From positions 38,167-102,166 of the forward strand of contig JAFTWA010000058.1 of NCBI GenBank assembly GCA_017465565.1: a DNA stretch of 64,000 nucleotides. The letters are read 5' to 3'. Positions 1 to 52,108 of this stretch are shown here, piece by piece. A program made the translations under genes and the position numbers. The notes below the pieces were generated by a model, which searched no databases, had not been told where the DNA came from, and saw nothing but the letters and a program-made list of their open reading frames with translations. Positions within the stretch are counted from its first letter, which is position 1, and every line of letters starts with the position of its first letter. The stretch comes from Tyzzerella sp. GTDB lineage: Bacteria; Bacillota; Clostridia; Lachnospirales; Lachnospiraceae.

Positions 1-336
1 AATATGCCTGAAAGTGGAAATTATAAGTATATTATGTTGACAGACGACAAGTATGCGGTACGTCTGCTTGGGAAAGTGAAGCAGAATGTAATGAGTTCTG
101 ATGCTAAAAAGTACATTTCAGCACATACGAGTGCGAATTTGTGCTGGCATATGAAAAATGCCGGTATTATAACCTGCAAGGAAGAGATTATCGAGATTTT
201 AAATGGAGAAAGAGGGAATGAACAGATAACGTGTTGTTATTCTGAAACATATGCCCTCTTTCCGGAAATGCAATCAGTGAGGTGTGAAGTGCTGGCAGAA
301 CAGGTTATGCAAGGAGCAGTGAAAATTTATATGTAA
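1..336 (+). CDS. 3' end of an unrecognised protein (partial at window edge)
   Basis: An open frame runs in from the window edge and stops with TAA at 334-336. A Met codon lies at position 4, but no ribosome site can be seen, so this is most likely the C-terminal ~110 residues of a longer protein. The segment is soluble and mixed in composition, with Cys residues in the motifs NLCWHM and ITCCYS and no membrane segment. I do not recognise the family. Its end overlaps the convergent AraC gene by 10 bases. It could equally be a complete small protein if a ribosome site lies outside the window. Confidence 0.5.
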   Translation, partial: NMPESGNYKYIMLTDDKYAVRLLGKVKQNVMSSDAKKYISAHTSANLCWHMKNAGIITCKEEIIEILNGERGNEQITCCYSETYALFPEMQSVRCEVLAEQVMQGAVKIYM

Positions 337-1232
337 GGAATATTGTTAAATTTGGGTGTTTTATTTTTGTATTCCATCGGTGTGCATTTCATGTATCTTT
401 TGAAAATCTGGCTGTAGTAGGAAGGGCTGGAAAAACCTACCATAGATGCAACCTCTGTAATACTGTCCGTTTTCTTTAATAGCGGAAGGCTGTTTTGAAT
501 TTTCAGGTATAAAATATAGTCGAAGATAGTCATTCCCATGTGCTTTTTGAAGAAACGACAGCATTCGCTCTTGCAGATATTTGCAGACTTTGCTACATCT
601 TCCAGAGACAACTCCTGGTTATAGTGCTCCTCAATGAAAAGGAGGATATCACGGAGGCGCTGAAGATGTTGCTTTGGTTTTGGCGCATGATCAGGCTGCA
701 AAGAAAAATATTGATAAAATTTTTGCCAGATATTCAAAAGCAGCATATGTACCCGTAACTCGAAGTCTGCAGGTTCATTCTGGGACAACTCATATATTTG
801 ACGAATATTTTCGAGAACCTCTTTCTGCCAGAGAACGGAAGTTTTTAGAACAAGTGAAGCCCATAACTCGTTGAAGGTTATGAAATTAACATATTTGGTA
901 CTTAGGATACTATTTTCATATCCATATAAAAAACGAGGATGGAATGTGACGGATAAATAAGTACATTCCTTGCCATCCTTCATGTGTCCTGAATGCAGGG
1001 AGTTGCTGTTGCAAAATATGCCATCGCCAGCGGAAAGCATATAGGTATTATCTTCAACCTGATACTCAATTTCTCCCGACAAAATAAGAGTCAGCTCTAC
1101 CTCTGGATGCCAGTGCCATAGAAAAAGTCCCTTCTCATAAGACTCTATTTTTTCAATACTTATATTTACTGGAAATGCATAATTTCCATGTTCTTTTAGT
1201 TCTTTTTGGTTTTTCTGTGTAATAATCTGCAT
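327..1232 (-). CDS. AraC-family transcriptional regulator with N-terminal cupin
   Basis: A 301-residue DNA-binding regulator. The N-terminal half (about 15-140) is a cupin-like ligand pocket containing HWHPEVELTLILSGE and the typical SAGDGIFCN strand. The last ~100 residues hold the two AraC helix-turn-helix motifs (LSLEDVAKSANICKSE and ITEVASMVGFSSPSYYSQIFKR). The start is set at the ATG at 1232, which has AAGGA about ten bases upstream; the frame can be extended ten codons to a TTG, but without a ribosome site. It is divergent from galK across 122 bases, so control of the gal operon by a sugar is the natural inference; the inducer is not visible. Relatives regulate many carbohydrate operons, so the galactose link rests on position only. 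Confidence 0.9.
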   Translation of the reverse strand: MQIITQKNQKELKEHGNYAFPVNISIEKIESYEKGLFLWHWHPEVELTLILSGEIEYQVEDNTYMLSAGDGIFCNSNSLHSGHMKDGKECTYLSVTFHPRFLYGYENSILSTKYVNFITFNELWASLVLKTSVLWQKEVLENIRQIYELSQNEPADFELRVHMLLLNIWQKFYQYFSLQPDHAPKPKQHLQRLRDILLFIEEHYNQELSLEDVAKSANICKSECCRFFKKHMGMTIFDYILYLKIQNSLPLLKKTDSITEVASMVGFSSPSYYSQIFKRYMKCTPMEYKNKTPKFNNIPYI

Positions 1233-1354
1233 AAATCTCAATATCCTTATAGAATAGTCCAATATTGTTATTGTGAAAACAAAAAAATCTCACTATCATT
1301 ATAAATGTAAAGCAAAAAGACTATATTTGCAAGAGAAAGAAGGTCGAATGTAAC

Positions 1355-2521
1355 ATGTTAGAAAAATTAAGACAGGAATTTGAAAAAAAATTTGGGGCTC
1401 ACGGAGATGTACGCGCATATTTTGCGCCAGGCCGTGTAAACTTAATCGGTGAACATACAGATTACAATGGTGGTCATGTATTTCCATGTGCACTCACAAT
1501 CGGTACATATGCAATCGCGAGAAAAAGAGACGATAACAAATTGAGATTTTACTCTATGAACTTTGACAAGATGGGGATCGTTGACACAGATTTAGATGAT
1601 TTAACGCCTTACAAGGCAGCAGGCTGGACAAATTATCCGAAGGGAGTTATCTGGGCATTTGAAAAGAGAGGCATGAAGCTCCCAGCAGGTCTTGATGTTT
1701 TGATTTACGGAAATATTCCAAATGGTTCAGGACTTTCTTCTTCTGCATCATTGGAAGTGTTAACAGGTATCATGTTAAAAGACATGTTTGGCTTTGATGT
1801 GTCTATGGTAGACATTGCGCTTATCGGACAATACTCAGAAAATAACTACAACGGATGTAACTGTGGTATCATGGACCAGTTTGCAAGTGCGATGGGAAAG
1901 AAGGATAATGCAATTTTCTTAGATACAAATACATTGGAATATGAATATGCGCCAGTTGTATTAGAAGATGCAAAAATTGTTATTGTAAATAGTAAGGTAA
2001 AACACAGCCTTGTGGATTCTGCCTACAATGACCGCAGAAATGAATGTGAGACAGCTTTGAAGGAACTTCAAGAAGTAATTGATATCAAAACACTTGGTGA
2101 TTTGACAGAAGAGGAATTTGAAGCTCATAAGGATGCAATCAAGTCTGAAATCAGACAAAGACGCGCAAAACATGCTGTATATGAAAATCAAAGAGCAATC
2201 AAAGCTGTGGCAGCTCTTAAGGCAGGGGATATTGAAACATTCGGTAAGCTTATGAATGCTTCTCACGTTTCGCTTCGTGACGACTATGAAGTATCTTGTA
2301 AAGAAATCGATATCTTAGTAGACCTTGCATGGGCAATTGACGGCGTAGTTGGTTCACGTATCACAGGCGGCGGATTCGGGGGCTGCACAGTAAGTATCGT
2401 AAAGAATGACGCAGTTGATAATTTTGTATCTACAATCGATGCAAAATACGAGGAAAAAGTAGGACACAAAGCAGAAATCTATGTAGTAGATATCGGTGAA
2501 GGAGCACACGTTTTAAACTAG
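1355..2521 (+). CDS. galK: Galactokinase
   Basis: Phosphorylates alpha-D-galactose to galactose 1-phosphate with ATP, the first committed Leloir step in the cytoplasm. The 388-residue protein has all GHMP-kinase signatures: the galactokinase motif GRVNLIGEHTDYNGG (about 27-41), the phosphate-binding loop PNGSGLSSSASLE (about 124-136) and the C-terminal GSRITGGGFGGC motif (about 331-342). Length is normal for the family. The start has AAGAAGG upstream, and a nearby earlier ATG is followed at once by a stop. It leads a galK-galT-galM operon with gaps of about ten bases and AGGAGG ribosome sites in front of the next two genes. The AraC gene upstream is divergent and may control it. Confidence 0.97.
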   Translation: MLEKLRQEFEKKFGAHGDVRAYFAPGRVNLIGEHTDYNGGHVFPCALTIGTYAIARKRDDNKLRFYSMNFDKMGIVDTDLDDLTPYKAAGWTNYPKGVIWAFEKRGMKLPAGLDVLIYGNIPNGSGLSSSASLEVLTGIMLKDMFGFDVSMVDIALIGQYSENNYNGCNCGIMDQFASAMGKKDNAIFLDTNTLEYEYAPVVLEDAKIVIVNSKVKHSLVDSAYNDRRNECETALKELQEVIDIKTLGDLTEEEFEAHKDAIKSEIRQRRAKHAVYENQRAIKAVAALKAGDIETFGKLMNASHVSLRDDYEVSCKEIDILVDLAWAIDGVVGSRITGGGFGGCTVSIVKNDAVDNFVSTIDAKYEEKVGHKAEIYVVDIGEGAHVLN

Positions 2522-2531
2522 GAGGACAACT

Positions 2532-4022
2532 ATGTTTTTTACAAATATTAAAAAATTAGTGCAGTATGGAATTAATACTGGACTCACACCAGAATGTGAA
2601 CGTATTTATACAACAAACTTATTGTTAGACTTATTTAAAGAAGACAATTACGAGGACACAGATATTTCTGGAGAAGAAATTGTATTAGAAGAGGTGCTCG
2701 CGGCATTATTGGATGAAGCAGTTGCGAGAGGTATTATTGAAGACAGCATTGTATACCGCGACCTCTTTGATACCAAGCTGATGAACTGTCTGATGCCAAG
2801 ACCAGCACAGGTGCAGGAAGAATTTTCACTCCGATATGAAGTATCTCCAAAGGAAGCGACAGATTATTTCTACAAATTAAGTCAGGACAGCGATTATATT
2901 CGCCGCTATCGTGTTGCGAAGGACCGCAAATGGAAGGTGGACAGTGCATACGGTGAAATTGATATTACGATTAACCTCTCAAAACCAGAGAAGGATCCTA
3001 AGGCAATCGCAGCAGCAAAGCTTGCAAAGGCAAGCAGCTATCCAAAATGTCTTCTCTGTGTAGAAAATGAAGGATATGCTGGGCGTGTAAATCATCCTGC
3101 AAGAGAAAATCACCGTATTATGCCAATTACAGTAAACGACAGCGCGTGGGGCTTCCAGTATTCTCCATATGTGTACTATAACGAACACTGTATCGTATTT
3201 AATGGGCAGCACACACCAATGAAAATTGAAAAAGCAACATTTATTAAGCTTTTTGATTTTGTAAAATTGTTCCCACATTATTTTCTTGGTTCAAACGCAG
3301 ACCTTCCAATCGTTGGCGGTTCAATTTTAAGCCATGACCATTTCCAGGGCGGACATTATACATTTGCCATGGCAAAAGCAGAAGTGGAAGAGACATTTGA
3401 AATCAAAGGTTTTGAGGACGTAGAAGTTGGTATTGTAAAATGGCCATTATCGGTACTTCGTCTCAGAGGAAAGGATGAAAAACGTTTGATTGACCTTGGA
3501 GCACACATCTTGGATGTTTGGAGAGGCTACACAGACGAAGCAGCATTTGTATTCGCAGAGACAGACGGAGAACCACACAATACAATTACTCCAATTGCAA
3601 GAAAGGTTGGAGATACGTTTGAATTGGATTTGGCACTTCGCAATAACATTACAACAGAAGAGCATCCACTTGGCGTTTACCATCCACATGCAGAGCGCCA
3701 TAACATCAAGAAAGAAAATATCGGTCTTATCGAAGTTATGGGTCTTGCTGTACTTCCAGCACGTCTCAAAGAAGAGATGGAAATTCTGGCGGATTATCTT
3801 GTGAATGGCAAGGATATTAGAAGCAATGAAAAGATTGAAAAACATGCTGAATGGGTAGAAACATTTGTTTCAAAATACGATGCCCTCACAGAGAAAAACG
3901 TAATGGGAATTCTGGAAAAAGAGATTGGAATTGTATTTACAAAGGTTCTGGAAGATGCAGGTGTATTCAAGTGCACAGCTGAGGGCAGAGAAGCATTTAA
4001 GCGGTTTATTGCCACATTATAG
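2532..4022 (+). CDS. galT: UDP-glucose--hexose-1-phosphate uridylyltransferase (Firmicute class II)
   Basis: Exchanges the UMP group between UDP-glucose and galactose 1-phosphate, giving UDP-galactose and glucose 1-phosphate. At 496 residues this is the long GalT type of Firmicutes rather than the ~350-residue enterobacterial type. Visible family segments are CLLCVENEGYAGR (about 173-185), the His-rich GGSILSHDHFQGGHY (about 263-277) around the nucleotidylation region, and NNITTEEHPLGVYHPH later on. TAGGAGGACAAC spans the galK stop and sets the start, so the two genes are translated from one message. galM follows 11 bases later. No galE (UDP-galactose epimerase) is present in the window, so that step must be encoded elsewhere. 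Confidence 0.97.
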   Translation: MFFTNIKKLVQYGINTGLTPECERIYTTNLLLDLFKEDNYEDTDISGEEIVLEEVLAALLDEAVARGIIEDSIVYRDLFDTKLMNCLMPRPAQVQEEFSLRYEVSPKEATDYFYKLSQDSDYIRRYRVAKDRKWKVDSAYGEIDITINLSKPEKDPKAIAAAKLAKASSYPKCLLCVENEGYAGRVNHPARENHRIMPITVNDSAWGFQYSPYVYYNEHCIVFNGQHTPMKIEKATFIKLFDFVKLFPHYFLGSNADLPIVGGSILSHDHFQGGHYTFAMAKAEVEETFEIKGFEDVEVGIVKWPLSVLRLRGKDEKRLIDLGAHILDVWRGYTDEAAFVFAETDGEPHNTITPIARKVGDTFELDLALRNNITTEEHPLGVYHPHAERHNIKKENIGLIEVMGLAVLPARLKEEMEILADYLVNGKDIRSNEKIEKHAEWVETFVSKYDALTEKNVMGILEKEIGIVFTKVLEDAGVFKCTAEGREAFKRFIATL

Positions 4023-4033
4023 GAGGATTTTTT

Positions 4034-5065
4034 ATGCAGACAAGAAGTTTTGGGAAAAGCAAAAATGGTGAAGAAACAACTTTATACACATTTACAAATA
4101 AAAATGGTATGACTATGGAAGTGACTGATTTTGGTGCAACATTGTATGCGCTTATGGTGCCAGATAAGGATGGAAATCCATGTGATGTGGTGCTTGGTTA
4201 TGACACTCCAGTACAATATGGAAATAGTGGAACTGGATTTGGTGCTACCATCGGAAGAAATGGTAACCGTATCGGTAAAGCGCAGTTTACACTGAATGGA
4301 AAAACATATGAGTTAGACAAAAATAATAATGGAAATAACTTACATAGCGGTAAGAATCATTACCAGCACCGTATGTGGACTGTAAAAGAAACGACAGAAA
4401 ATAGTATTACACTTTCGCTTCACAGTCCAGATGGTGACCAGGGATTTCCAGGAACATTTGATGTAGATGTAACTTACACAATCACAGATGACAATGAACT
4501 TAGAATTGATTACAATGGTGTGTCTGATGCAGATACTATCGTAAATATGACAAACCACAGCTATTTTAACTTGAATGGACATGCTTCAGGAAGCATCGAA
4601 CAGCACGAACTTTGGATGGATGCAGATGCATTTACACCAACAGACGTGGAACTTATTCCAACAGGTGAGATTAGACCGGTAGAAGGAACACCAATGGATT
4701 TCCGTGTGAAGAAGTTAGTGGGAAGAGACATTGATGCGGATTATGAAGCGTTGACATTTGGTGGTGGATATGACCACAACTGGTGTCTCAATAATAACGG
4801 GGAATTCAAGAAGGTTATAGAGCTTGCAGCAGATGTAAGTGGAATCAAGATGGAAGTTTACACAGACCTTCCGGGTGTTCAGATTTACGCAGGTAATTAC
4901 CTGAAAAACGAACCTGGAAAAGGCGGAATCTTCTATAAGAAACGTCAAGGAATCTGCTTTGAGACTCAAGGATACCCAGATTCTATGAATCATGACAACT
5001 TCCCAAGTGTTGTATGTAAGGCTGGGGAAGCCTATAAGACAACAACAATTTACAAGTTTGTATAG
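4034..5065 (+). CDS. galM: Aldose 1-epimerase (galactose mutarotase)
   Basis: Interconverts beta- and alpha-galactose, supplying the alpha anomer for galactokinase. The 343-residue beta-sandwich protein has the family landmarks: GATIGRNGNRIGKAQF near the N-terminus, MTNHSYFNLNGH around the catalytic His (about residue 177), and the C-terminal GICFETQGYPDSMNH that carries the catalytic Glu. TTATAGGAGGATTTTTTATG joins it to the end of galT. It is the last gene of the operon and is followed by a long inverted repeat lying between it and the convergent tmRNA gene, which probably ends transcription from both sides. Confidence 0.97.
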   Translation: MQTRSFGKSKNGEETTLYTFTNKNGMTMEVTDFGATLYALMVPDKDGNPCDVVLGYDTPVQYGNSGTGFGATIGRNGNRIGKAQFTLNGKTYELDKNNNGNNLHSGKNHYQHRMWTVKETTENSITLSLHSPDGDQGFPGTFDVDVTYTITDDNELRIDYNGVSDADTIVNMTNHSYFNLNGHASGSIEQHELWMDADAFTPTDVELIPTGEIRPVEGTPMDFRVKKLVGRDIDADYEALTFGGGYDHNWCLNNNGEFKKVIELAADVSGIKMEVYTDLPGVQIYAGNYLKNEPGKGGIFYKKRQGICFETQGYPDSMNHDNFPSVVCKAGEAYKTTTIYKFV

Positions 5066-5076
5066 AAATGCAAAGA

Positions 5077-5479
5077 AAAAGGGGCTATTGCAAAAGTAGT
5101 ATAGCCGAGTCGGAAAAATATCCGTGATTTAAGACACAAGTTCATTGTTTGGATGGATTTGTGTCTTTTATTATGCATAAAACTGAATATTGCAAAAAAA
5201 GTTCCATATAGAGAAAAATTGATTCTTCAGGCCCCGAAATCATAGTAAAATCCAGAAAAATTCCTTGTTTTTTCCCTATGGCAGAAAATAATTTCGTGCA
5301 GCCCTGGGTTTTGCTCAAAAGCGGGGCTTGGCAACAGAATTTTTCTCTATATGGAATTTTTTGCAATATTCAGTTTTATGCATAATAAAAGACACAAATC
5401 CATCCAAACAATGAACTTGTGTCTTAAATCACGGATATTTTTCCGATTCGGCTATACTACTTTTGCAATAGCCCCTTTT
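5077..5479. repeat. Long inverted repeat, MITE-like, between galM and ssrA
   Basis: Two arms of about 140 bp (5077-5219 and 5338-5479) are inverted copies differing by about one substitution (GAGTCGG versus GAATCGG) and a small indel after TTGCAAAAAA. They enclose a ~118-bp centre with no recognisable gene. The ends read AAAAGGGGCTATTGCAAAA. A 74-residue minus-strand frame inside it resembles nothing I know. Transcription from either side would give a very long RNA hairpin, so it can act as a terminator for both galM and ssrA. The form (long terminal inverted repeats, no transposase) fits a non-autonomous mobile element; the ends recall IS1182-type tips, but that is from memory. Confidence 0.85.
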
Positions 5480-5481
5480 AG

Positions 5482-5825
5482 TGGACCTGAGGGGAATCGA
5501 ACCCCTGTCCGAAAGCCCATCCATCAAGGCATCTCCCATCACAGTCATTATTTTGACATTCCCTCCATCAGACGCCTAATGACAGGCTTCTGACTTTAGT
5601 AGCTTCATAAGTTCTTCCATCCCCTCAAAGCTTTGGGAACGAAGTGCCTCACCTCGTTGAAGCCGGACGCTTAGGCAGTGAGCGACCTAAGGCCGACTGC
5701 TGCCACTAGGCAGCGTACGCTAAATTATCGTTTGCGTTTAATTTTAAAGTACGGATTGTTACGCGGTCCCGCCCCGCGGATGGCTTCCTCAACTTCAAAA
5801 CCCCCGTCGAAACCAGTACAAGCCC
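5482..5825 (-). ncRNA. ssrA: Transfer-messenger RNA (tmRNA)
   Basis: Rescues stalled ribosomes by acting first as an alanine tRNA and then as a message for a degradation tag. The 5' end GGGCTTG (5825-5819) pairs with the 3' CAGGTCC (5489-5483) to give a seven-pair acceptor stem with two G-U pairs. TTCGACGGGGG follows the 5' end and the T-arm GGTTCGATTCC precedes the 3' end, as in all tmRNAs. The tag frame runs from resume codon GCA at 5735 to TAG at 5708-5706 and reads ANDNLAYAA. The bases after the discriminator A read CTA rather than CCA, so the CCA tail seems not to be encoded. The inverted repeat begins at once beyond this point. Confidence 0.97.
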
Positions 5826-5953: not shown

Positions 5954-7048
5954 ATGAAAAAAGCATTAGTTATGGTTCTTAGCATGATTATCGGTGGCGC
6001 AGGTGGATTCTTTGGTGCCATGTACATTGATTCTTTGGGTGGTTCTTTGATGGATTTGGCCCTGTTTGTGGTGGCGATTGCAGTGGCATCTTATCTGCAA
6101 ATCATCATACATGAGGGAGGACATTTAATCTTTGGTCTCCTTACAGGCTATCGTTTTGTTTCTTTTCGAATTGGAAGTATTATGATTTACAGACATAAAG
6201 GACAAATAAAGTTTGGAAAATATTCTCTTGCAGGAACCGGTGGGCAATGCCTTTTGTCACCGCCTGACATGATAGATGGAAAGATGCCATATGTGCTTTA
6301 TAATCTGGGTGGCATCATTATGAACCTAGTTGCGTCGCTGTTCTGCGCGCTGATTCTTTTCGTTAAGCCAGGGATGTTGATTTCTTGTTTCTGTGTTGGA
6401 ATGATAGCAATAGGAATTCTTATCATAATCACAAATGGATTGCCAATTCAAATGGGTGAAGTGGATAACGACGGCCGAAATGCCATGAACATGGGGAAAA
6501 GTCCAGAGGCACTCCGGAGTCTTTGGCTTCAACTGAAAATTAACGAGTATATGACGGAAGGGATTCGCCTGAAGGATATGCCAGAAGAGTGGTTTTTAAT
6601 GCCAACAGAAGAAGCGATGGCAAATGGCATGGTGGCATCGATAGGCGTATTTCACTGTAACCGTCTGATGGACGAAGGGGATTTTCCAAAAGCAGGGCAG
6701 AAGATAGAAGAACTTCTGGCAATGAAGACGGGAATGATTGGGATTTACAGAAGTCTTCTCACGCTGGATTTGGTTTACTGTGAGCTTATGGGTGAGAGAA
6801 GAAAAGAAATATTAGACCGGATGAAGCAGAAAGATATGACATCACTCATGAAAGCCATGAAAAATTTCCCGGCTGTCCTTCGGTCGCAGTATGCATATGC
6901 TGCTCTGGAAGAAAAAGATATGCAGAAGGCAGGTCAAATAAAGAAGAATTTTGAAAAGATAAAAAACAGTTATCCATATCCACAGGAAATTGAGGGAGAA
7001 TGTGAACTTATAAAGAATGTAGATAGTATGAGGGATAGTAATGAATAA
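5954..7048 (+). CDS. M50-like membrane metalloprotease (site-2-protease type)
   Basis: A 364-residue integral membrane protein. Residues 1-60 hold a signal-anchor-like helix and a second hydrophobic helix containing H53-E-G-G-H57, the HExxH zinc motif of the M50 clan. After two more hydrophobic stretches (about 112-160) comes NGLPIQMGEVDNDG (161-174), placed like the NxxP...D/NDG third-ligand motif of site-2 proteases. The C-terminal ~180 residues are soluble and helical, with the look of a TPR-like solenoid. The gene overlaps the next, a LytTR regulator, by eight bases, and a GHKL kinase follows, so cleavage of a peptide or membrane regulator linked to this signalling pair is likely. No substrate gene is visible. 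Family placement is from motifs only. Confidence 0.75.
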   Translation: MKKALVMVLSMIIGGAGGFFGAMYIDSLGGSLMDLALFVVAIAVASYLQIIIHEGGHLIFGLLTGYRFVSFRIGSIMIYRHKGQIKFGKYSLAGTGGQCLLSPPDMIDGKMPYVLYNLGGIIMNLVASLFCALILFVKPGMLISCFCVGMIAIGILIIITNGLPIQMGEVDNDGRNAMNMGKSPEALRSLWLQLKINEYMTEGIRLKDMPEEWFLMPTEEAMANGMVASIGVFHCNRLMDEGDFPKAGQKIEELLAMKTGMIGIYRSLLTLDLVYCELMGERRKEILDRMKQKDMTSLMKAMKNFPAVLRSQYAYAALEEKDMQKAGQIKKNFEKIKNSYPYPQEIEGECELIKNVDSMRDSNE

Positions 7049-7757
7049 GAAGTATCGCATTGCTATCGTGGAAGATGAATTGGAATTCCGCGAACAGCTA
7101 CAGAATTATTTAAAAAAATATGAAGAAGAAAATGGTATTTCTTTCCATATCTCTGAGTTTGAAGATGGAACAGATATCGTAGAAAATTATAAAAATGAAT
7201 ACGATATTATTTTATTGGACATAGAGATGCCGAAGTTAAATGGCATGGACGCAGCAGAAATGATTCGTGAGAAAGATGAAAATGTGGTTATCATGTTTAT
7301 CACGAATATGGCACAGTATGCAATTCGAGGTTATTCTGTAGGGGCACTCGATTTTGTGATGAAACCGATTACATATTATACCTTTGCCATGAAGATGACA
7401 AGGGCGCTTAAGCGAGCGCAAAAGCGGGAACAGAAATCGCTTATGTTAAATACGCCAGATGGAATCAAAACATTGCAAATCAAACAGATTTATTATGTGA
7501 AAATAGAAAACCGCATGTTACATTACTTTACGGATGAAGGTGAAATTATAGTACGGGGAACACTTCAGAGTGCAGAAGAACTTTTAAAGCCATATCCGTT
7601 TGCAAAGTGTAATCAGGCATATCTTGTAAATTTGATGCATGTAAAAGAAGTGAGGAAAAGCATTGCAACTGTAGGACCATATGAAGTGGAAATCAGCAGA
7701 AGAAATAAAACAGCATTTCTCCAAGCACTGACAGAGTCGATGGGAGGTAACCTATAA
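7041..7757 (+). CDS. LytTR-family response regulator (AgrA-like)
   Basis: A 238-residue DNA-binding response regulator. The receiver domain (about 5-120) has the acidic pair E11-D12, the phospho-acceptor D60 in LLDIEMP, and K107 in FVMKPI. The C-terminal ~100 residues (about 140-236) are a LytTR domain, with IYYVKIENRMLHYFTDEG and the typical FAKCNQAYLVNLMHVKEV. It starts eight bases inside the end of the protease gene, with GAGGG upstream, and its stop TAATG overlaps the kinase start. Phosphorylation by that kinase is the obvious inference. Target sites of such regulators are paired direct repeats; none is convincingly visible near this operon. Confidence 0.93.
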   Translation: MNKKYRIAIVEDELEFREQLQNYLKKYEEENGISFHISEFEDGTDIVENYKNEYDIILLDIEMPKLNGMDAAEMIREKDENVVIMFITNMAQYAIRGYSVGALDFVMKPITYYTFAMKMTRALKRAQKREQKSLMLNTPDGIKTLQIKQIYYVKIENRMLHYFTDEGEIIVRGTLQSAEELLKPYPFAKCNQAYLVNLMHVKEVRKSIATVGPYEVEISRRNKTAFLQALTESMGGNL

Positions 7758-9040
7758 TGGGAATATTGCAAATCTGGATTCTGCAGATGACCTTTTGGGT
7801 GAGCGGAGCGATTTTCTCATGCTCAATGGAAAAAAGAGAACGTTTTGGAGTCAGGGCAGGTATCTTTGCGATTCTGGCAATTGTTGAAGGAATCATTTTT
7901 CAACTTTTATGGGGCGGACAAATGTGGCTTGTGCTGGGCGGACGAGTTGTCTCTGCTGTTTTGATGGTTATTATTCTTTGGTGTTGCTGGCAGATAACCT
8001 GGACAGTCTCAGTTTACAATGCTATCTGGGGAATGTCTGTGTGGCAGCTTGCGTTAGAACTGTGGAAGGTGGCCCGATTTTGGGAAAACAGTGTGTTTAT
8101 AGAAAATGTGCTGGCGGATGTTTTGTTGATTTTGGGTTTGTTCGGTGGAAGTTTTGTTATATGCGCCTGTACTATAGCGAGATGGATGCCAAAAGACCGA
8201 AAAAAGAAAATTGGTCCTAGACAATTATCATCGGCAATTTTAATATTTTTAATTATTGAAATGCTGGCATATTCACCGACATTAAGTGGATTTACTGCAT
8301 ACAACGAAGATTGGAAATTCTTATATTTATCTCAATTAATGTGTCTGGTAATTTTATACCTGCAAAATGAACTTTTTAAGAAGAGTGAAATGAAGCAGGA
8401 ATTAGCACTTATGAATCTTCTATGGAAAAAAGAGCAGGACCAGTACCAGCTTACAAAAGAGAATATTGCACTGATTAATCAAAAAAGCCATGATTTAAAG
8501 CATCAGATAAGGGCGCTTCGTAAGGCAAGCAAGGAAGAATTAGATACATACTTGGATGAGATGGAAGACAGTGTTCGTATCTATGAGGCAATTGTAAAAA
8601 CTGGGAATGATGTTTTTGATACAATTCTGACAGAGAAAAGTCTCTACTGTAAAGACAGGGGGATACAGGTTTCCTGTGTGGCAGATGGAAGTCAGATGGA
8701 TTTTATTAATACAGTTGATTTATACGCAATACTTGGAAATGCAATGGACAATGCAATTGAAGCGGTTGAAAAATTCGATGAATTGGAAAAACGTCAGATT
8801 GATGTTATGATTTACCGACAACAGAATTTCCTGGTAATGAACATTATTAATCCAATCGATGGAAATCTGATTTACGAGGGTGAATTTCCTGTAACAACAA
8901 AAGGTGATAAGAAGTTTCATGGTTATGGACTTAGAAGTATAAAATATATTTTGAATAAATATGATGGTGTCTTAAATATTAGCGAGGAAGATGGGTGTTT
9001 TTCTTTGAAAATTTTAATACCGATTCCGAATGAACAATAA
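7757..9040 (+). CDS. GHKL-domain sensor histidine kinase (AgrC-like)
   Basis: A 427-residue membrane sensor. The N-terminal ~205 residues form about six hydrophobic segments with no large external domain, the layout seen in peptide-sensing AgrC/ComD-type kinases. The cytoplasmic part has a coiled-coil linker, the phospho-acceptor H245 in KSHDLKHQIRALR, the N box LGNAMDNAIEA (about 330-340) and the G box HGYGLRSI (about 391-398). Translation is coupled to the response regulator by a TAATG overlap, and a strong terminator directly follows the stop. The absence of an extracellular sensor domain suggests that the signal is a peptide or a membrane event. Its link to the M50-like protease rests on the operon. 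Confidence 0.92.
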   Translation: MGILQIWILQMTFWVSGAIFSCSMEKRERFGVRAGIFAILAIVEGIIFQLLWGGQMWLVLGGRVVSAVLMVIILWCCWQITWTVSVYNAIWGMSVWQLALELWKVARFWENSVFIENVLADVLLILGLFGGSFVICACTIARWMPKDRKKKIGPRQLSSAILIFLIIEMLAYSPTLSGFTAYNEDWKFLYLSQLMCLVILYLQNELFKKSEMKQELALMNLLWKKEQDQYQLTKENIALINQKSHDLKHQIRALRKASKEELDTYLDEMEDSVRIYEAIVKTGNDVFDTILTEKSLYCKDRGIQVSCVADGSQMDFINTVDLYAILGNAMDNAIEAVEKFDELEKRQIDVMIYRQQNFLVMNIINPIDGNLIYEGEFPVTTKGDKKFHGYGLRSIKYILNKYDGVLNISEEDGCFSLKILIPIPNEQ

Positions 9041-9083
9041 AAGAGGTTTTGTTCGTCAAAATGACGAATAGAACCTCTTTTTA
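9041..9083 (+). terminator. Rho-independent terminator after the GHKL kinase
   Basis: AAGAGGTT..GTTCGTCA, a loop of AAA, then TGACGAA..GAACCTC followed by TTTTT. The stem has more than 13 pairs with small bulges and begins directly after the stop codon. Confidence 0.88.
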
Positions 9084-9198
9084 CTTACCGCTTAGGACAC
9101 AAAAACGACCGCTTGTGAAATTTCGATAAAAGTTGGTAGAAATTGATATAATTTATGGGTAAATTGCCCAAAATCACTGGAAATTGTGTAAATATGCA

Positions 9199-9281: not shown

Positions 9282-11216
9282 ATGAGAAAGATCACAAAAC
9301 TCATGGCCGGATGGAGTTTTACCGACCAACAGGGAAACAGAACAGCTGTTCAATTGCCACATACATGGAATGCGAAGGACGGACAAGACGGTGGAAATGA
9401 CTACTGGCGTGGCACATTGGTATATGACAATCATTTTGCGAAACCAGAATACAATGCAGAAAAAGAATGTGTATACTTACAATTCCATGGTATTAATGCA
9501 AGTGCAAATATTATTTTGAATGACGAATCTGTATGTAAACATGATGGAGGATATTCCACATTTCGTGTAGAAGTAACAGAGAAACTCAAGGAAGATAATA
9601 GTATCGTTATTGAAGTGGATAACAGTGTAAATGACCGTGTATATCCACAAAAAGCAGATTTTACATTTTATGGTGGAATCTATCGTGATATTGAAATTTT
9701 AGTGGTTTCGAAAGAACACTTTGATTTGGACTATTATGGTGGTCCAGGTATGAAATATGTAACAAAAGTGTCTGGAAAAGATGCAGAGGTACATGTAAAT
9801 ACTTATATAAATGAAGCGGCAAAGAGTGCAAACGCTAAAGTTGTAGTTGAACTATCCGATGACAGGGGAAATGTAGTTGCAGATGCAGAAGGCTTGGATG
9901 TAACTCTTGATATTCCAAACGTACATCTCTGGGATGGTTTGGAAGACCCATATTTATATCAAATTAAAGCTACTTTAATTAAAAATGGAAATGAAGTAGA
10001 CGAAATTTCATGTAACTGCGGTGTTCGTACATTTGAATTCAGTCCAAAAGACGGATTTCATCTGAATGGAAGACCATATCCACTTCACGGTGTGTCTCGT
10101 CATCAGGATTTTAAAGGTATTGGAAATGCAATTTCAAGAGCAGAACATGACAGAGATATGGAACTTATCCGTGAATTAGGTGCGAATACGATTCGTTTGG
10201 CACACTATCAGCATGACCAGTATTTCTATGATTTATGTGATAAAGCCGGAATGATTGTCTGGGCGGAAATTCCTTACATTTCAGAGCATTTGGCAAACGG
10301 AAATGAGAACACAATTTCACAGATGAAGGAATTGATTATTCAGAATTACAATCATCCAAGTATTGTGGTTTGGGGTGTTTCAAACGAAATTACAATTTCA
10401 GGAAGACAGTACAAGAAGCAAATGCTTGCAAACCACCATGCATTAAATGACTTGTGTCATGAAATGGACCCTACTCGTCCAACAACACTTGCTTGTTATG
10501 CAATGTGTCCACACTGGCATCCAGTTGCTCACATCACCGATTTGGTTGGATGGAACTTATATCTTGGATGGTATGTGCCATTCTTGTGGTTAAATGATTT
10601 ATGGATTAAATTTTGGCATTTCCTATATCCAAACCGCTGCTTGTGTTATTCAGAGTACGGTGCAGAGGGTATGCCAAATCTTCACTCTAAGAAACCAAAA
10701 CGTGGAGATAATTCAGAAGAATACCATTCTAAATATCATGAATATATGCTCGAATGCTTCAAACGCTTCCCATATATGTGGGCGCATTACTACTGGAATA
10801 TGTTTGACTTCGCGGCAGATGCCCGTAATCAGGGCGGCGAGCCAGGTATGAACCATAAAGGTTTAATTACATTTGACCGTAAGACAAAGAAAGATGCATT
10901 CTACTTATACAAAGCATACTGGAATAAGAAGGATAAATTCGTTTATCTTGCTGGCAGACGCTATGAATACCGCAGCGCAGCGCAGCAGACGATTACAGTT
11001 TACTCTAACTTAGATGAAGTTTCTTTATATCACAATGGCAAACTTGTTGGAACCAAGAAGGGCGAAAACGTATTCAAATTTGATATTACTTTAGAAGCAG
11101 AGAATAAGTTAGAAGTAAAAGCAGGTGATTACACAGACAGCTGTGTGATTTATAAAGTAGATGAAGAGAAACCAGAATATCGCTTGGCAAAAGGCGATAG
11201 TTCGAACTGGATGTAA
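9282..11216 (+). CDS. Glycoside hydrolase family 2 protein
   Basis: A 644-residue exo-acting glycosidase with no signal peptide, so probably cytoplasmic. Order: jelly-roll sugar-binding domain (about 1-150, with PHTWNAKDGQDGG and FYGGIYRDI), immunoglobulin-like domain (about 155-260), and TIM barrel from about 265. Catalytic residues are visible: acid/base E369 in VVWGVSNE and nucleophile E458 in CYSEYGAEG. Substrate cannot be read directly; the family covers beta-galactosidase, beta-glucuronidase and beta-mannosidase. The NKG motif typical of glucuronidases is not seen, which leans towards a galactoside-type substrate. It starts at 9282 behind AAAGGGG; an ATG four bases earlier is out of frame. 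The operon continues with a GH3 enzyme and a sugar symporter. Confidence 0.93.
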   Translation: MRKITKLMAGWSFTDQQGNRTAVQLPHTWNAKDGQDGGNDYWRGTLVYDNHFAKPEYNAEKECVYLQFHGINASANIILNDESVCKHDGGYSTFRVEVTEKLKEDNSIVIEVDNSVNDRVYPQKADFTFYGGIYRDIEILVVSKEHFDLDYYGGPGMKYVTKVSGKDAEVHVNTYINEAAKSANAKVVVELSDDRGNVVADAEGLDVTLDIPNVHLWDGLEDPYLYQIKATLIKNGNEVDEISCNCGVRTFEFSPKDGFHLNGRPYPLHGVSRHQDFKGIGNAISRAEHDRDMELIRELGANTIRLAHYQHDQYFYDLCDKAGMIVWAEIPYISEHLANGNENTISQMKELIIQNYNHPSIVVWGVSNEITISGRQYKKQMLANHHALNDLCHEMDPTRPTTLACYAMCPHWHPVAHITDLVGWNLYLGWYVPFLWLNDLWIKFWHFLYPNRCLCYSEYGAEGMPNLHSKKPKRGDNSEEYHSKYHEYMLECFKRFPYMWAHYYWNMFDFAADARNQGGEPGMNHKGLITFDRKTKKDAFYLYKAYWNKKDKFVYLAGRRYEYRSAAQQTITVYSNLDEVSLYHNGKLVGTKKGENVFKFDITLEAENKLEVKAGDYTDSCVIYKVDEEKPEYRLAKGDSSNWM

Positions 11217-11250: not shown

Positions 11251-14200
11251 ATGGACAAGAAAGAAATCAAGGCTCGCAAAAAAGCCTACAAAAAAGCTTT
11301 GAGAAAGGCTAGAAGACCTTGGAAATTCTTAACTATCCTCAGTGCACCTCTTGCAATTATTTTCACAGTGATGTTGATTATTGTTTCAATGTTTGACAAC
11401 ACAGTTGCATTATTTGTAGGTGGTACATTCTGGAAATTAGAAAACGAAGATCCAAGTGCAATTTACTATGAAAGTGATTTTGCAACAAATGAAGAAAGAA
11501 TTGAAAAAGGTGCTGAACTTGTAAAAAAAGTTGAAGCAGAAGGTGCATCTCTTTTAACAAATGAAAACAAAGCACTTCCACTTGCGAGTGGCTCTAAAGT
11601 AAGCTTGTTCTCAACTTCATCTGTAAACATTGTTTATGGTGGTACAGGTTCGGCAAACGTAGATGCTTCACAATGTGATAACTTAAAAACAGCATTAGAG
11701 AAAGAAGATTTTACGGTAAATCCAACATTATGGGATTTCTACTTGACAGGTGAGGCTGCTGAATATACACGCGGTAATGCAGGGGCTGTAGTGCAAGACT
11801 CTGCAACAGCTAGTGGATATGGAACAGCAGAAATTGTAGAAGCTCCATGGAAGCTCTACACAGAAGATGTAATTAATTCTGTTGGCGAATATGGTGATGC
11901 AGCAATCGTTGTATTATCACGTATCGGTGGAGAAGGTGCAGACAGCTATTTCGATGATAAATTAGGTGATGGTAAAAACTATCTTGCATTAAACGATATC
12001 GAAAAAGAAATGATGACTAATATCAAAGCATTAAAAGATGCTGGAAAAATTAGCAAAATCGTGGTATTAATTAATACTTCAAACGCTCTTCAGGTTGATT
12101 TCTTAAAGAACAACGAGTATGGAGTAGACGCTGCACTTTGGATTGGCGGTGTAGGACAGACAGGTCTCAATGCGGTGGCTGAAATCTTAAGTGGTAAAGT
12201 GAACCCATCAGGCAGCCTGCCAGATACATACTGCTATGACAACTACTCAAGCCCAGTTATGCAAAACTTTACACCAGTTGTTTACGAAGGCGACACAAGC
12301 AAGATTCCTGCACATGCAGATACATACATGGTATACCAAGAAGGTATCTATGTAGGTTACAAATATTATGAAACACGTTACGAAGATTACGTAATGGGTA
12401 CAGGTAATGCAGGTGAATACGCTTATGGCGATGACGTTGCATTCCCATTCGGTTATGGTCTCAGCTATACAGAATTCGAATACAGCGATATGACGCTTGC
12501 CTATGATGAAGCTACAACAACATATACAATCAACGTGAAAGTTACAAACAAAGGTGAAGTAGCAGGTAAAGAAACAGTTCAAATCTACGTTTCTAGCCCA
12601 TACACACAATACGATATTGATAACAAAGTGGAAAAAGCTTCCGTATCATTAGTTGGATTTGATAAGACAGACATCTTAGAGCCAGGCGCATCTGAAACAT
12701 TGACAATCGAAGTGGATGGCGACTATGTAGCAAGCTACGACGCTTATGGCGCTGGCACATATATCTTAGACGCTGGTGATTACTACTTCACAGCAGCTAC
12801 AGATGCCCACAATGCAGCGAACAACGTATTAGCAGCAAAAGGTTACACAGCAGAAAGTACAAATGGCCGTATGGACGCAGCTGGTAATGCTTCATTAGTA
12901 ACAAAATGGAACAATCCAGAATTAGACACTGTCACCTACGCTACAAGCGATGCTGGTACAGAAATCAATAACAAATTAAATGCTTCTGACCCTAACATGA
13001 ACGAAGAAGTAGACGACATTGTATACTTGACACGTAATGACTGGGAAGGTACAATGCCAAGCTTAGAAAAGACAGTTAAAATCGTATTGAACGAGTATCT
13101 AATTCAAGCTTTACAAGATCAACAATACACTTCAGACCCAAGTTCTGCAGTATCAATGCCTAGACTTGGTGCAGACAACGGTTTGAGACTTTACGACATG
13201 ATCGGTCTTGATTATGACGATCCAAAATGGGACGAGTTATTAGATCAACTTACATTTGATGAAATGGTTTCATTGATTGGTGATTCATTCCACTGGACAA
13301 TGCCTGTAATATCAGTTCAGGCACCTGGAACACGTGATGAAAATGGTCCTCAGGGATTAACAGTTGCTTTATTCGGCAGCCAGCTTGGTGTTGAAACGAC
13401 AGCCCTTACTTCAGAAGACGTGTTAGCAGCTACATTTAACAAAGATTTAGTATATGAAATTGGTAATATCGTAGGTAACGACTGTTTAGAAGCAGAAATC
13501 ACATTCCTCTATGGTCCTGGTGCAAATACACACAGATCTCCATATGGTGGACGTAACTTCGAATACTATTCAGAAGATGCTGTTTTATCATCAGAAATTG
13601 GTAAAGCAGAAGTAAAAGGTATTGAAGACAAAGGTGTATTCGTAGTAATGAAACACTTTGCATTGAATGATTGTGAACAAGACAGAATCGGTCTTGGTGT
13701 TTGGTTAAACGAACAAGCTGCTCGTGAAATCTATTTAAGAGCATTCCAAGGTGCCTTAGAAGACTCACAAGCTGGTGGAAATGGTGTTATGATGGCTTAT
13801 ACTCGTTGGGGTGCTCAATGGTCAGGTGCTAACGCAGGACTAGTTAAGGGTATCTTAAACGAAGAATGGCAATGTAATGGTCTTCAAATTACTGACAACG
13901 TACTCAACACAATGGTTAATGGCGTTGATGGTGTAATGGGCGGAACCACAACATACGATTCAATGCTTACATTCATGATTACTAATAATGGATTAGCAAA
14001 ATATGAAGACGATCCTGTAGTAGTTTCAGCTATGAGAGAAGCTTGTCACCATAACTTGTATGCAATTGCAAATTCACAGGCAATGAATGGTATCGGAGCA
14101 AACACAACAATTGAAAGAACAGAGCCTACAGTTAAAGTTATGTGTCAGATCTTATCTTGTGGATTCTGGTTCTTGCTTGTACTCTCGCTGGTACTCTGGA

Positions 14201-14280
14201 TTATCAAAGTAAGCAAGTTCAGAAAATCAGAAGAATATATCAGCTATAAAGAATTTAGAAAATCATTAAAAAACAAATAA
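11251..14280 (+). CDS. Membrane-anchored GH3 glycosidase with swapped domain order
   Basis: A 1009-residue protein related to family 3 beta-glucosidases, but built back to front. A Lys/Arg-rich start and a hydrophobic helix (about 23-50) are followed by the usual C-terminal GH3 domain (GASLLTNENKALPL, then FPFGYGLSYTEFEY) and an Fn3-like domain. The usual N-terminal barrel comes second, with KHFALNDCEQDR and a nucleophile motif QITDN where most relatives have SDW. A second hydrophobic helix near 968-988 and a basic tail end the protein. Both tails should be cytoplasmic and the enzyme outside. The start is at 11251 behind AAAGGGAG; the frame is open further back but overlaps GH2. Swapped GH3s are known from Butyrivibrio and Ruminococcus; double anchoring is less usual. 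Confidence 0.9.
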   Translation: MDKKEIKARKKAYKKALRKARRPWKFLTILSAPLAIIFTVMLIIVSMFDNTVALFVGGTFWKLENEDPSAIYYESDFATNEERIEKGAELVKKVEAEGASLLTNENKALPLASGSKVSLFSTSSVNIVYGGTGSANVDASQCDNLKTALEKEDFTVNPTLWDFYLTGEAAEYTRGNAGAVVQDSATASGYGTAEIVEAPWKLYTEDVINSVGEYGDAAIVVLSRIGGEGADSYFDDKLGDGKNYLALNDIEKEMMTNIKALKDAGKISKIVVLINTSNALQVDFLKNNEYGVDAALWIGGVGQTGLNAVAEILSGKVNPSGSLPDTYCYDNYSSPVMQNFTPVVYEGDTSKIPAHADTYMVYQEGIYVGYKYYETRYEDYVMGTGNAGEYAYGDDVAFPFGYGLSYTEFEYSDMTLAYDEATTTYTINVKVTNKGEVAGKETVQIYVSSPYTQYDIDNKVEKASVSLVGFDKTDILEPGASETLTIEVDGDYVASYDAYGAGTYILDAGDYYFTAATDAHNAANNVLAAKGYTAESTNGRMDAAGNASLVTKWNNPELDTVTYATSDAGTEINNKLNASDPNMNEEVDDIVYLTRNDWEGTMPSLEKTVKIVLNEYLIQALQDQQYTSDPSSAVSMPRLGADNGLRLYDMIGLDYDDPKWDELLDQLTFDEMVSLIGDSFHWTMPVISVQAPGTRDENGPQGLTVALFGSQLGVETTALTSEDVLAATFNKDLVYEIGNIVGNDCLEAEITFLYGPGANTHRSPYGGRNFEYYSEDAVLSSEIGKAEVKGIEDKGVFVVMKHFALNDCEQDRIGLGVWLNEQAAREIYLRAFQGALEDSQAGGNGVMMAYTRWGAQWSGANAGLVKGILNEEWQCNGLQITDNVLNTMVNGVDGVMGGTTTYDSMLTFMITNNGLAKYEDDPVVVSAMREACHHNLYAIANSQAMNGIGANTTIERTEPTVKVMCQILSCGFWFLLVLSLVLWIIKVSKFRKSEEYISYKEFRKSLKNK

Positions 14281-14302: not shown

Positions 14303-15865
14303 ATGGGAAACGAACAAAAAGCAGCAAACACAGGAGTGAACCGTGCTAAGATGTATCAATTGGCACTGTTCCCACTCAACAACGGTGCGACAAACGTTTA
14401 TTATGTATTAATCTTGTCTTATATCGCAACATTCGGTAACAATGTACTAGGTATTGCTACTGTATTTGCATCAGTAATGGTAACAGGTATGCGTGTATTT
14501 GATGCCATTACTGACCCAATCATTGGGGCATTAATGGACCGTACAAATGGTAAATTTGGTAAGTTCAGACCGTTCATCGTAATTGGTAACGCGATTATGG
14601 CAATTTCTGTTATTGTGTTATACATGGTAACACCACTTATCCCGGCAGATATGGTTGGCTTGCGTTATGCGGCATTTATACTCTTATATGCAGTATGGGT
14701 AATCGGATACACATTCCAGACATCAGTAACTCGTTCTGGACAGACTGTATTGACAAATGACCCTAACCAAAGACCATTATTCACAATTTTTAATACCATT
14801 GGTTCTATGGCAGGTATGGGACTTATGCAGTTTTTGGCGCCAATCGTTCGTTCAAACGTAGCGGACTATGACAGTGCAAGCTTTTATGCATTCTTAACGC
14901 CAATTGGCGTGGGCGTATCGATTGTTCTTAGTATTTTAGCTATCATCGGTATCTGGGAAAAGGATAACTCAAAATACTTTGGTATCGGTGGAGACAAGCA
15001 AGAAAAGACAAAGATGTCAGAATATATCGAAATCATCAAAAACAACAATCCAATGCAGCGCTTAATGGTTGCAGGTGCTGGATGTAAATTGGCATTATCG
15101 ATTGCGACAAACTTAACAGTACTTTGTATGTTATACGGGTGTATGATGGGCAACTACGATGGATTATACTTACCAATGATGGTAGTTGGTTATGTATGCT
15201 CGGTACCATTCTTCATGTTGACAGTGCGTACCTCTCAAAAACAGGGTCAAAAGGCGTCCTTAATGAAGTACGTAGCAATTGCATTTGTATGCTATATCGG
15301 TGTTTTAGCACTGCTCCTTCTCTGGAAGCAGGGCAATCCAGCATGGAATATGAGATTGGATGTATCTTTTAAACTGTTCGGTGGAAATATAGATTTTAGT
15401 TTTGGTACCAACTTATATACAATCTTATTCATTATCTTCTTTGGTATTGGATATGGAGCATACTACTCAACAGCAGATATGCCAATCCCAATGGTAGCTG
15501 ACTGTTCAGACTACGAAACATACCGCTCAGGAAAATACATTCCAGGTATCATGGGAACATTATTCTCATTAGTAGATAAATTAGTATCTTCATTATCAGC
15601 TACAGTAGTAGGTATTGCAGTTTCTGTTATCGGATTGGAAAACCTGCCAACAGCTGAAACTCCATATGCACCAGGAATGAACTGGGTTGTTATCGTATTA
15701 TTCTGTATCATCCCAATGGTGGCTTGGGCAATTACGTTACTCGTAATGAAGGGCTATGAATTAACGGGTCCCCGTATGAAAGAGATTCAAGCAATCAATA
15801 CACAGCGTAAGGAAGCAATCGCTAATGGAATGAGTATGGAAGAAGCAATGGAAAAATACAAATAA
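14303..15865 (+). CDS. GPH-family sugar:cation symporter
   Basis: A 520-residue membrane transporter of the glycoside-pentoside-hexuronide:cation symporter family (melibiose carrier type, MFS fold), with about twelve hydrophobic helices. Landmarks are the early DAITDPIIGALMDRTNGKFGKFRP loop (about 72-95), where the acidic residues bind the coupling cation, and the central loop with EKDNSKYFG between the two six-helix halves. It lies 22 bases after the GH3 gene, behind GAAGGAA, and ends the operon at a terminator. It would import a glycoside or oligosaccharide, with external cleavage by the anchored GH3 and internal cleavage by GH2. The exact substrate is not readable. Confidence 0.93.
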   Translation: MGNEQKAANTGVNRAKMYQLALFPLNNGATNVYYVLILSYIATFGNNVLGIATVFASVMVTGMRVFDAITDPIIGALMDRTNGKFGKFRPFIVIGNAIMAISVIVLYMVTPLIPADMVGLRYAAFILLYAVWVIGYTFQTSVTRSGQTVLTNDPNQRPLFTIFNTIGSMAGMGLMQFLAPIVRSNVADYDSASFYAFLTPIGVGVSIVLSILAIIGIWEKDNSKYFGIGGDKQEKTKMSEYIEIIKNNNPMQRLMVAGAGCKLALSIATNLTVLCMLYGCMMGNYDGLYLPMMVVGYVCSVPFFMLTVRTSQKQGQKASLMKYVAIAFVCYIGVLALLLLWKQGNPAWNMRLDVSFKLFGGNIDFSFGTNLYTILFIIFFGIGYGAYYSTADMPIPMVADCSDYETYRSGKYIPGIMGTLFSLVDKLVSSLSATVVGIAVSVIGLENLPTAETPYAPGMNWVVIVLFCIIPMVAWAITLLVMKGYELTGPRMKEIQAINTQRKEAIANGMSMEEAMEKYK

Positions 15866-51995: not shown

Positions 51996-52017
51996 AGATA
52001 TCTAAAGAGTGGAATGG

Positions 52018-52057
52018 TTGACATTCTAGAATAGTATTAGTAAAATTACTTATAAGT
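52018..52057 (+). promoter_or_regulatory. Promoter of the purEMND operon
   Basis: TTGACA (52018-52023), 17 bases, TAAAAT (52041-52046), then the perfect palindrome ACTTATAAGT (52048-52057) over the start region. No purine riboswitch fold and no PurR box are evident in the 113-base leader. Confidence 0.7.
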
Positions 52058-52108
52058 GATAATGGATTTATTTTGATTGCTTATAAATAAACCAAGGAGG
52101 AAAGAGAA

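What the first reader, a model, noticed from the sequence alone, without database searches (positions are those of the whole stretch)
5954..9040. M50-like protease fused by operon to a LytTR/GHKL (Agr-like) signalling pair
Seen: HEGGH at residues 53-57 and a NGLP...DNDG motif in a multi-helix membrane protein, overlapping by eight bases a LytTR regulator whose stop overlaps a GHKL kinase with about six helices and no external domain. Known: GHKL/LytTR pairs of this layout (AgrC/AgrA, ComD/ComE) sense peptides, and M50 proteases cut membrane-embedded substrates, some releasing peptide pheromones (Eep). Inference: the protease makes or destroys the signal, or is itself the regulated sensor. No Agr-type AgrB or obvious pre-peptide gene is present, so this would be a different arrangement.
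Basis: partly seen in the sequence, partly recalled or inferred. Interest (0 to 1): 0.72.

Follow-up and report, generated by a model that had tools for sequence, protein, structure and literature searches.

The report
Sugar-locus two-component pair, stray protease
The kinase/regulator pair looks like a switch for a neighbouring set of sugar-releasing enzymes (including a probable glucuronidase) rather than a cell-to-cell peptide signal system, and the protease gene in front of it appears to be an unrelated gene that landed there in this one genome.

Summary
In detail: an M50 (site-2-type) protease gene M (5954-7048), a LytTR response regulator R (7041-7757) and a GHKL kinase K (7757-9040) lie head to tail with 8- and 1-base overlaps. 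The proposed three-gene signalling unit is not supported. Of 96 distinct M relatives elsewhere (86 with at least 700 bp downstream), none has a LytTR/GHKL neighbour; none of 87 fetched K relatives has M within 6 kb. K belongs to a branch of GHKL kinases that sit beside glycoside hydrolases: GH3 within 6 kb in 69 of 87, against 1 of 40 more distant GHKL kinases. In the window R-K is followed by a GH2 enzyme with the hexuronidase NxK motif, a membrane-anchored GH3 and an MFS_2 transporter. Between K and GH2 lies ACCGCTTAG-N12-ACCGCTTGT, which has the layout and nearly the letters of the EMSA-tested HdrR LytTR box; it recurs at that place in 7 other loci. Best reading: R-K switches on this operon. 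M is an independent protease (S2P half plus TPR-like half) found upstream only here, while the genus's usual M copy has decayed. A LytTR-GH3 link was printed in 2010 for one rumen species.

The parts
5954..7048 (+). M: M50 (site-2-type) membrane metalloprotease, N-terminal S2P-like half and C-terminal helical TPR-like half
7041..7757 (+). R: response regulator, receiver + LytTR DNA-binding domain; GAGG ribosome-site-like letters lie inside the end of M
7757..9040 (+). K: GHKL histidine kinase, about six membrane helices, no large external domain
9041..9082 (+). terminator-like hairpin with T-run after K (read by eye; not listed by the scanner)
   Evidence: sequence; one search did not list it
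9087..9116 (+). LytTR-type direct repeat ACCGCTTAG-N12-ACCGCTTGT, proposed binding site of R
   Evidence: compared with the published boxes read
9123..9152 (+). promoter-like TCGATA-18-TATAAT, -10 hexamer at 9147-9152, 30 bp after the repeat
9282..11216 (+). GH2 enzyme, nearest solved relatives include FMN-binding gut beta-glucuronidases; NxK and catalytic Glu motifs kept, no C-terminal domain
11251..14280 (+). membrane-anchored GH3 (hydrophobic stretch near each end, C-domain before N-domain), catalytic Asp and Glu kept; the listed ORF starts at 11161, the likely start is 11251
14303..15865 (+). MFS_2 (GPH-type) sugar transporter
5479..5825 (-). tmRNA gene, divergent from M (neighbour, not part of the system)

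Best explanation
R and K form a two-component system dedicated to the operon just downstream (GH2 - anchored GH3 - MFS_2 transporter). K senses, at or in the membrane, a molecule that reports the presence of the glycoside (a sugar, uronide or aglycone; inferred, identity unknown) and phosphorylates R. R binds the direct repeat at 9087-9116 and turns on the promoter at 9123-9152. The operon then yields an enzyme displayed outside the cell (GH3), an importer and a probable intracellular beta-hexuronidase (GH2). M is an independent site-2-type protease with a TPR-like tail. It was found upstream of R-K in this genome only and is probably co-transcribed with it, but is not beside the system in other species. 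Shown by computation: gene order, families, association, the repeat and its place. Inferred: phosphotransfer, R binding, activation, substrate, ligand.
For: GH3 lies within 6 kb in 69 of 87 K relatives (48 of 60, 21 of 27) against 1 of 40 more distant GHKL kinases. In a FastTree of 98 kinases a branch with local support 98 holds 60 rows, 52 of them with GH3/GH2; the label needs 8 changes against 32.8 in shuffles. R-K-GH2-GH3-MFS_2 in the window's order occurs in L195, L196, L198 and L199, without M within 6 kb. The repeat has one perfect match in the 64-kb window, exactly between K and GH2. The same 9-12-9 repeat is in L195-L200 and L283 at the same place. Among the 30 best GH2 loci (window included) it is in 7 of the 8 with R or K just upstream of GH2 and in 0 of the other 22. 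PMC6193735 lists HdrR ACCTCTTAG-12-ACCACTTAA (EMSA-tested) and BrsR ACCACTTAT-12-ACCGCTTAT. M: 0 of 96 distinct relatives have LytTR/GHKL genes within 4 kb; M is in 0 of 87 K loci within 6 kb.
Against: No expression or binding data; K's ligand is unknown. The two GH2 genes nearest in identity, G148 (82% over part) and G221 (80%), and G143 (63%) have no R-K pair or repeat beside them in 14, 10 and 13 kb, so the short GH2 clade can do without R-K. L292/L340 has R but no repeat, and L283/L339 has only a 117-aa LytTR piece and no K. Outside the GH2-type loci the repeat is weaker: 8 of 34 K-to-GH intervals reach 13 of 16 positions, and at 12 of 16 period 20 (7 of 34) nearly equals period 21 (8 of 34). 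The letters of the pattern were read off some of these same loci, so their letter match is partly circular. The 8-base M/R overlap with a Shine-Dalgarno-like GAGG inside M argues that M and R are co-translated here, so some functional tie in this one genome is not excluded.
Confidence: 0.75

Rival explanations
1. One reading: M cleaves K, a partner or a pro-peptide and so controls R-K; the three genes form one signalling unit.
For: M, R and K overlap in one apparent operon. The protease residues are conserved. M's C-terminal half resembles, among many TPR proteins, the peptide receptors Rap, PlcR and AimR.
Against: 0 of 96 distinct M relatives neighbour LytTR/GHKL genes, 86 of them with at least 700 bp downstream. 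No M within 6 kb of 87 K relatives. Complete R-K-GH2-GH3-MFS_2 loci exist without it (L195, L196, L198, L199). The LytTR repeat is not upstream of M.
Confidence: 0.12
2. R-K is an Agr/ComDE-type peptide quorum-sensing pair that happens to have glycosidase genes as its targets.
For: Same protein classes as AgrC/AgrA, and 15.8 bits (E 0.006, far under the cut-off of 500) to the AgrC model for K. The LytTR box type is shared with streptococcal bacteriocin and competence regulators.
Against: No AgrB-like gene beside it; the one AgrB found in the genome lies on contig C32, 1.3 kb from another LytTR gene. The neighbours of the whole branch are mostly glycosidases. Small pre-peptide genes were not searched with a dedicated method.
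Confidence: 0.1
3. The target operon serves a different sugar (a beta-galactoside or beta-glucoside) and GH2 is not a hexuronidase in life; the regulatory logic is the same.
For: Leloir galactose genes (named by eye) and an AraC regulator lie just upstream. Some nearest PDB chains are named beta-galactosidase. The GH3 is nearest to beta-glucosidases. NxK alone is not proof.
Against: N-x-K is kept in 6 of 6 full-length GH2s of the window-type loci and in 29 of the 30 best GH2 loci; it separates GH2 hexuronidases from galactosidases in most subfamilies (PMC12243196, passages). 6MVH is named as an FMN-binding glucuronidase of Roseburia hominis (PMC9377255, passages).
Confidence: 0.25

Closest known systems
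LytTR response regulators near secreted GH3 enzymes in Butyrivibrio proteoclasticus B316 (PMC2914790, passages read)
   Same: LytTR regulator close to a secreted GH3 with a C-terminal membrane helix, at three polysaccharide loci; the authors inferred a common function
   Different: One genome, no kinase clade, no binding site and no GH2 hexuronidase partner in the passages read
HdrR/BrsR LytTR regulatory systems of Streptococcus mutans (PMC6193735, passages read)
   Same: Nearly identical direct repeats with 12-bp spacing just upstream of -35
   Different: Those regulators pair with inhibitory membrane proteins and autoregulate; R has a receiver domain and a GHKL kinase, and no such repeat was found upstream of R
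Agr (AgrC/AgrA)
   Same: GHKL kinase with membrane helices and no large external domain (AgrC side recalled); LytTR regulator
   Different: No AgrB beside it; glycosidase neighbours
FMN-binding gut beta-glucuronidases (6mvh, 6mvg, 7kgz)
   Same: GH2 aligned over 621-639 residues, NxK and catalytic Glu kept
   Different: The window protein ends at 644 aa, without the C-terminal domain; FMN binding not tested; the long form (L295-L309) was beside R/K in 0 of 15 loci, with about 1.5 kb seen
Site-2 proteases (RseP, M. jannaschii S2P, SpoIVFB)
   Same: HExxH, N..P and Asp motifs and N-terminal fold
   Different: About 180-residue TPR-like C-terminal half; substrate unknown

Membership tests
M50 / site-2 protease | HExxH and a later conserved Asp as metal ligands | tested here: met
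   H53, E54, H57 and D173 invariant in 55 rows; HExGH in 94 of 96 distinct relatives
M50 / site-2 protease | Profile match and S2P fold | tested here: met
M50 / site-2 protease | Zinc geometry and proteolytic activity | not testable with these tools
   Model coordinates were not at hand and no metal was modelled
GHKL/LytTR two-component system | GHKL ATPase kinase next to receiver-LytTR regulator | tested here: met
   R within 6 kb of K in 58 of 60 and 25 of 27 relatives
Agr quorum-sensing system | AgrB beside the pair | tested here: not met
   The one AgrB found in the genome is at C32:51992-52525, another contig
Agr quorum-sensing system | Pre-peptide gene beside the pair | not tested
   No dedicated search for small pre-peptide genes was run
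LytTR-box promoter target | 9-mer direct repeat, 12-bp spacer, 4-11 bp before -35 | tested here: met
   9087-9116, 6 bp before TCGATA at 9123; layout from PMC6193735
GH2 beta-glucuronidase | NxK motif and catalytic Glu pair | tested here: met
   NHK at 524-526, WGVSNE, SEYGA in the window protein; L198 and L199 did not match the SEYGA-type pattern
FMN-binding GUS | FMN site and C-terminal domain | tested here: inconclusive
   No C-terminal domain after residue 644; FMN residues not examined
Three-gene M50-LytTR-GHKL unit | Conserved co-occurrence in related genomes | tested here: not met
   0 of 96 M relatives, 0 of 87 K relatives

The most novel reading that the evidence does not exclude
In this lineage an intramembrane protease carrying a TPR domain shaped like the Rap/PlcR/AimR peptide receptors has been newly wired, by translational coupling, to a glycoside-sensing GHKL/LytTR pair, so that a peptide or membrane cue gates a glucuronidase operon.
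Probability: 0.1. Interest if true: 0.75.

Novelty: new variant of a known kind. Interest (0 to 1): 0.45.

Why it matters
GHKL/LytTR pairs are commonly taken to sense peptides (recalled). Here a whole branch of them is tied to glycosidase loci, with a predicted binding site in the window-type loci, so a sugar-type signal becomes directly testable. The window-type operon carries a relative of the gut glucuronidases that reactivate mycophenolate (PMC9377255, passages). In the listings of four searches (one search showed 10 of 23 papers) I saw no report of a LytTR or kinase regulator for such enzymes in these bacteria.

Tried and rejected
Three-gene unit: rejected by neighbourhood counts. L026 first looked like an M plus regulator case; its regulator starts 2.2 kb away and reads as an OmpR-type protein by eye. 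Conserved neighbours of M: none; the commonest class, ABC-transporter ATPases (named by eye), was in 9 of 76 loci at varying places. Catalytically dead anchored GH3 acting as K's external receptor: a motif scan suggested it, but the alignment shows the catalytic Asp and Glu in 40 of 40, read by eye. Repeat upstream of R (autoregulation): 0 of 56 near and 0 of 33 control loci. One search used a faulty pattern (period 20); its counts are void and were redone. Plasmid search with M: only two Enterococcus raffinosus records at 32% over half the protein. PDB by sequence for M: nothing meaningful. A paper search for M50 with TPR gave nothing on this protein in the 8 of 19 papers listed.

One search scored at most 4 candidates a genome and at most 3. 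The 40 controls were taken from hits of about 82-111 bits, not all of them. Several near loci end at contig ends. The tree and the repeat scans used the first 60, and near and control sets differ by similarity to K from the start, so the tree is not an independent selection. GtrA-like and GH78 labels were given by eye. The own genome is 88.6% complete.
Full report
Observation. The three genes are as described: M 5954-7048, R 7041-7757, K 7757-9040, all on the + strand, with 8- and 1-base overlaps. Pfam finds Peptidase_M50 in M just above its cut-off, Response_reg + LytTR in R and the GHKL ATPase domain in K. K has six hydrophobic stretches, the last ending at residue 202. A tmRNA gene lies divergently upstream (5479-5825, minus).

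M does not travel with R-K. Of the 96 distinct M relatives, 86 have at least 700 bp downstream and none has a LytTR/GHKL gene within 4 kb of what was fetched; the single hit, in L026, is an OmpR-like regulator 2.2 kb away. Neighbours of M are scattered. The genus's usual M locus is present in this genome as a broken remnant: contig C33 keeps about 81 N-terminal and 45 C-terminal residues at 88% and 87% identity to the intact same-genus copy in G008, in the same gene surroundings, with the middle missing. The window's M is only 46-53% identical to the best matches listed, same-genus copies included. So it is a second, diverged copy at a new place. This fits an independent role for M, though one genome cannot prove it.

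R-K travels with glycoside hydrolases. I fetched 60 K relatives (phmmer 152-504 bits), later the 27 further places listed at 151 bits or more, and 40 weaker GHKL kinases as controls (73-108 bits). Within 6 kb: GH3 in 48 of 60 and 21 of 27 (69 of 87), GtrA-like (by eye) in 22 and 8, GH2 in 13 and 4, MFS_2 in 7 and 0, M in 0 and 0. In controls GH3 was in 1 of 40 and GH2, MFS_2 and M in 0. In a FastTree of 98 kinases (window, the near set and the controls) one branch (local support 98) holds 60 rows, 52 with GH3/GH2; the label needs 8 changes against a shuffled mean of 32.8, and 0 of 500 shuffles were as low. Long branches among the controls make the tree approximate there. The order R-K-GH2-GH3-MFS_2 of the window occurs in L195 (K 55% identical), L196 (55%), L198 and L199, the last two with one small extra frame before the transporter.

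A binding site. Between K and GH2 the window has ACCGCTTAG-N12-ACCGCTTGT at 9087-9116. With the 16-position pattern this is the only match without mismatch in 64 kb; five others need 3 mismatches, and shuffles give a mean of 3.07 matches at that laxness. With a regular expression it is the only hit on either strand. In 34 K-to-GH intervals, 9-base direct repeats peak at a period of 21 (21 of 34; other periods mean 9.9, sd 3.0). The ACCRCTTR pair reaches 13 of 16 positions in 8 of 34 at period 21, against 0-1 at other periods from 15 to 30; at 12 of 16 the contrast is weak (8 at period 21, 7 at period 20). The pattern's letters were read off some of these loci, so the period peak and the published boxes are the independent support. 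The repeat is present in L195, L196, L198, L199 and L200 at the same place (in L195 and L196 it overlaps the last bases of K) and in L197 and L283 with one letter changed. It lies 30-34 bp before a -10-like hexamer, which matches TATAAT at 4 to 6 of 6 letters, four of the eight at 4 only, the best place being chosen. Across the first 100 fetched loci the regular expression hits 7 times in the 60 near loci, 5 of them at this place, and once in the 40 controls. Passages of PMC6193735 give the HdrR box ACCTCTTAG-12-ACCACTTAA, tested by EMSA, and the BrsR box ACCACTTAT-12-ACCGCTTAT, found there by scanning. I conclude, by inference, that R binds here. No repeat was found upstream of R in 56 near loci, so autoregulation through this site is unlikely.

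What the operon does. GH2 (644 aa) is nearest in the PDB to chains named beta-galactosidase or beta-glucuronidase (8ges, 6mvh, 6mvg, 7kgz; E <= 8e-205). PMC9377255 (passages) names 6MVH as the Roseburia hominis 2 FMN-binding glucuronidase. The motif N-H-K and both catalytic Glu motifs are kept in the window protein, and PMC12243196 (passages) states that NxK distinguishes GH2 hexuronidases from galactosidases, though some hexuronidase subfamilies lack it. The window protein lacks the C-terminal domain; PMC9377255 reports that stopping Rh2GUS after residue 644 cut its specific activity eightfold. Homologues of this GH2 at E<=1e-120 are in 73 of 397 genomes, own included. Of the 30 best loci, window included, 8 have R or K just upstream of GH2; the repeat is in 7 of these 8 and in 0 of the other 22, four of which have about 500 bp or less upstream (L285, L290, L291, L294). 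The 15 long-form loci (L295-L309) show no R/K in about 1.5 kb. Longer stretches tell against a strict tie: G221 (80% identical), G148 (82% over part; its GH2 did not match the NxK pattern) and G143 have no LytTR/GHKL pair beside GH2, G439 keeps only a 117-aa LytTR piece with the repeat, G043 has R alone without the repeat, and G296 has R-K downstream of GH3-GH2-MFS_2. The window GH3 has C-domain before N-domain, a hydrophobic stretch near each end and, like 40 of 40 large GH3s aligned (by eye), the catalytic Asp and Glu, so it is probably an active enzyme on the outer face (inference).

Known and new. The link of LytTR regulators with secreted, membrane-tailed GH3 enzymes was noted in 2010 for Butyrivibrio proteoclasticus (PMC2914790, passages), and a LytTR regulator plus kinase is listed in one Roseburia locus (PMC5320581, passages). 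Searches for LytTR with glycoside hydrolase, beta-glucosidase, glucuronidase and GH3 showed, in the listings, no report of the kinase branch, the binding site or the hexuronidase operon; only the papers named here were opened. The one AgrB found in the genome is on contig C32, 1.3 kb from another LytTR gene, so the window pair is probably not its Agr system.

Verdict. Observation confirmed; the three-gene signalling idea fails its own test; the R-K pair is best read as a glycoside-operon switch. Which molecule K senses, and whether M gained any role in this lineage, remain open.

Noticed in passing
G000:C33:26891-27340 (L275:5392-5841, minus): Broken copy of the genus's usual M50 gene: N- and C-terminal ends kept at 87-88% identity to G008's intact gene, middle missing, gene surroundings conserved.
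   Followed up: yes
G000:C32:51992-55373: A probable true Agr locus of the same genome: AgrB at 51992-52525, LytTR at 53791, GHKL kinase match at 54582.
   Followed up: partly
G000:C38:30807-32663 and G000:C22:29807-31678: Two further GH2 relatives in long form (open frames 753 aa, 51-52% identical to the window GH2) in the same genome.
   Followed up: no
window 1355-5065, with AraC-type regulator 327-1262 (minus): Leloir galactose genes (galactokinase-, uridylyltransferase- and mutarotase-like, named by eye) just upstream of the tmRNA gene.
   Followed up: no
L042:5938-8225: Two M50-like genes in tandem, the second with 146 bits to M.
   Followed up: no
window 5954-7048, residues about 184-364: M50 protein whose C-terminal half models as TPR-like helices, top structural rows being Rap, with AimR and PlcR lower; helical-repeat caution applies.
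   Followed up: partly
L339:7067-7500 (G439): Only a 117-aa LytTR-domain piece of R remains before GH2, no K seen in 12.5 kb, yet the direct repeat is intact.
   Followed up: no
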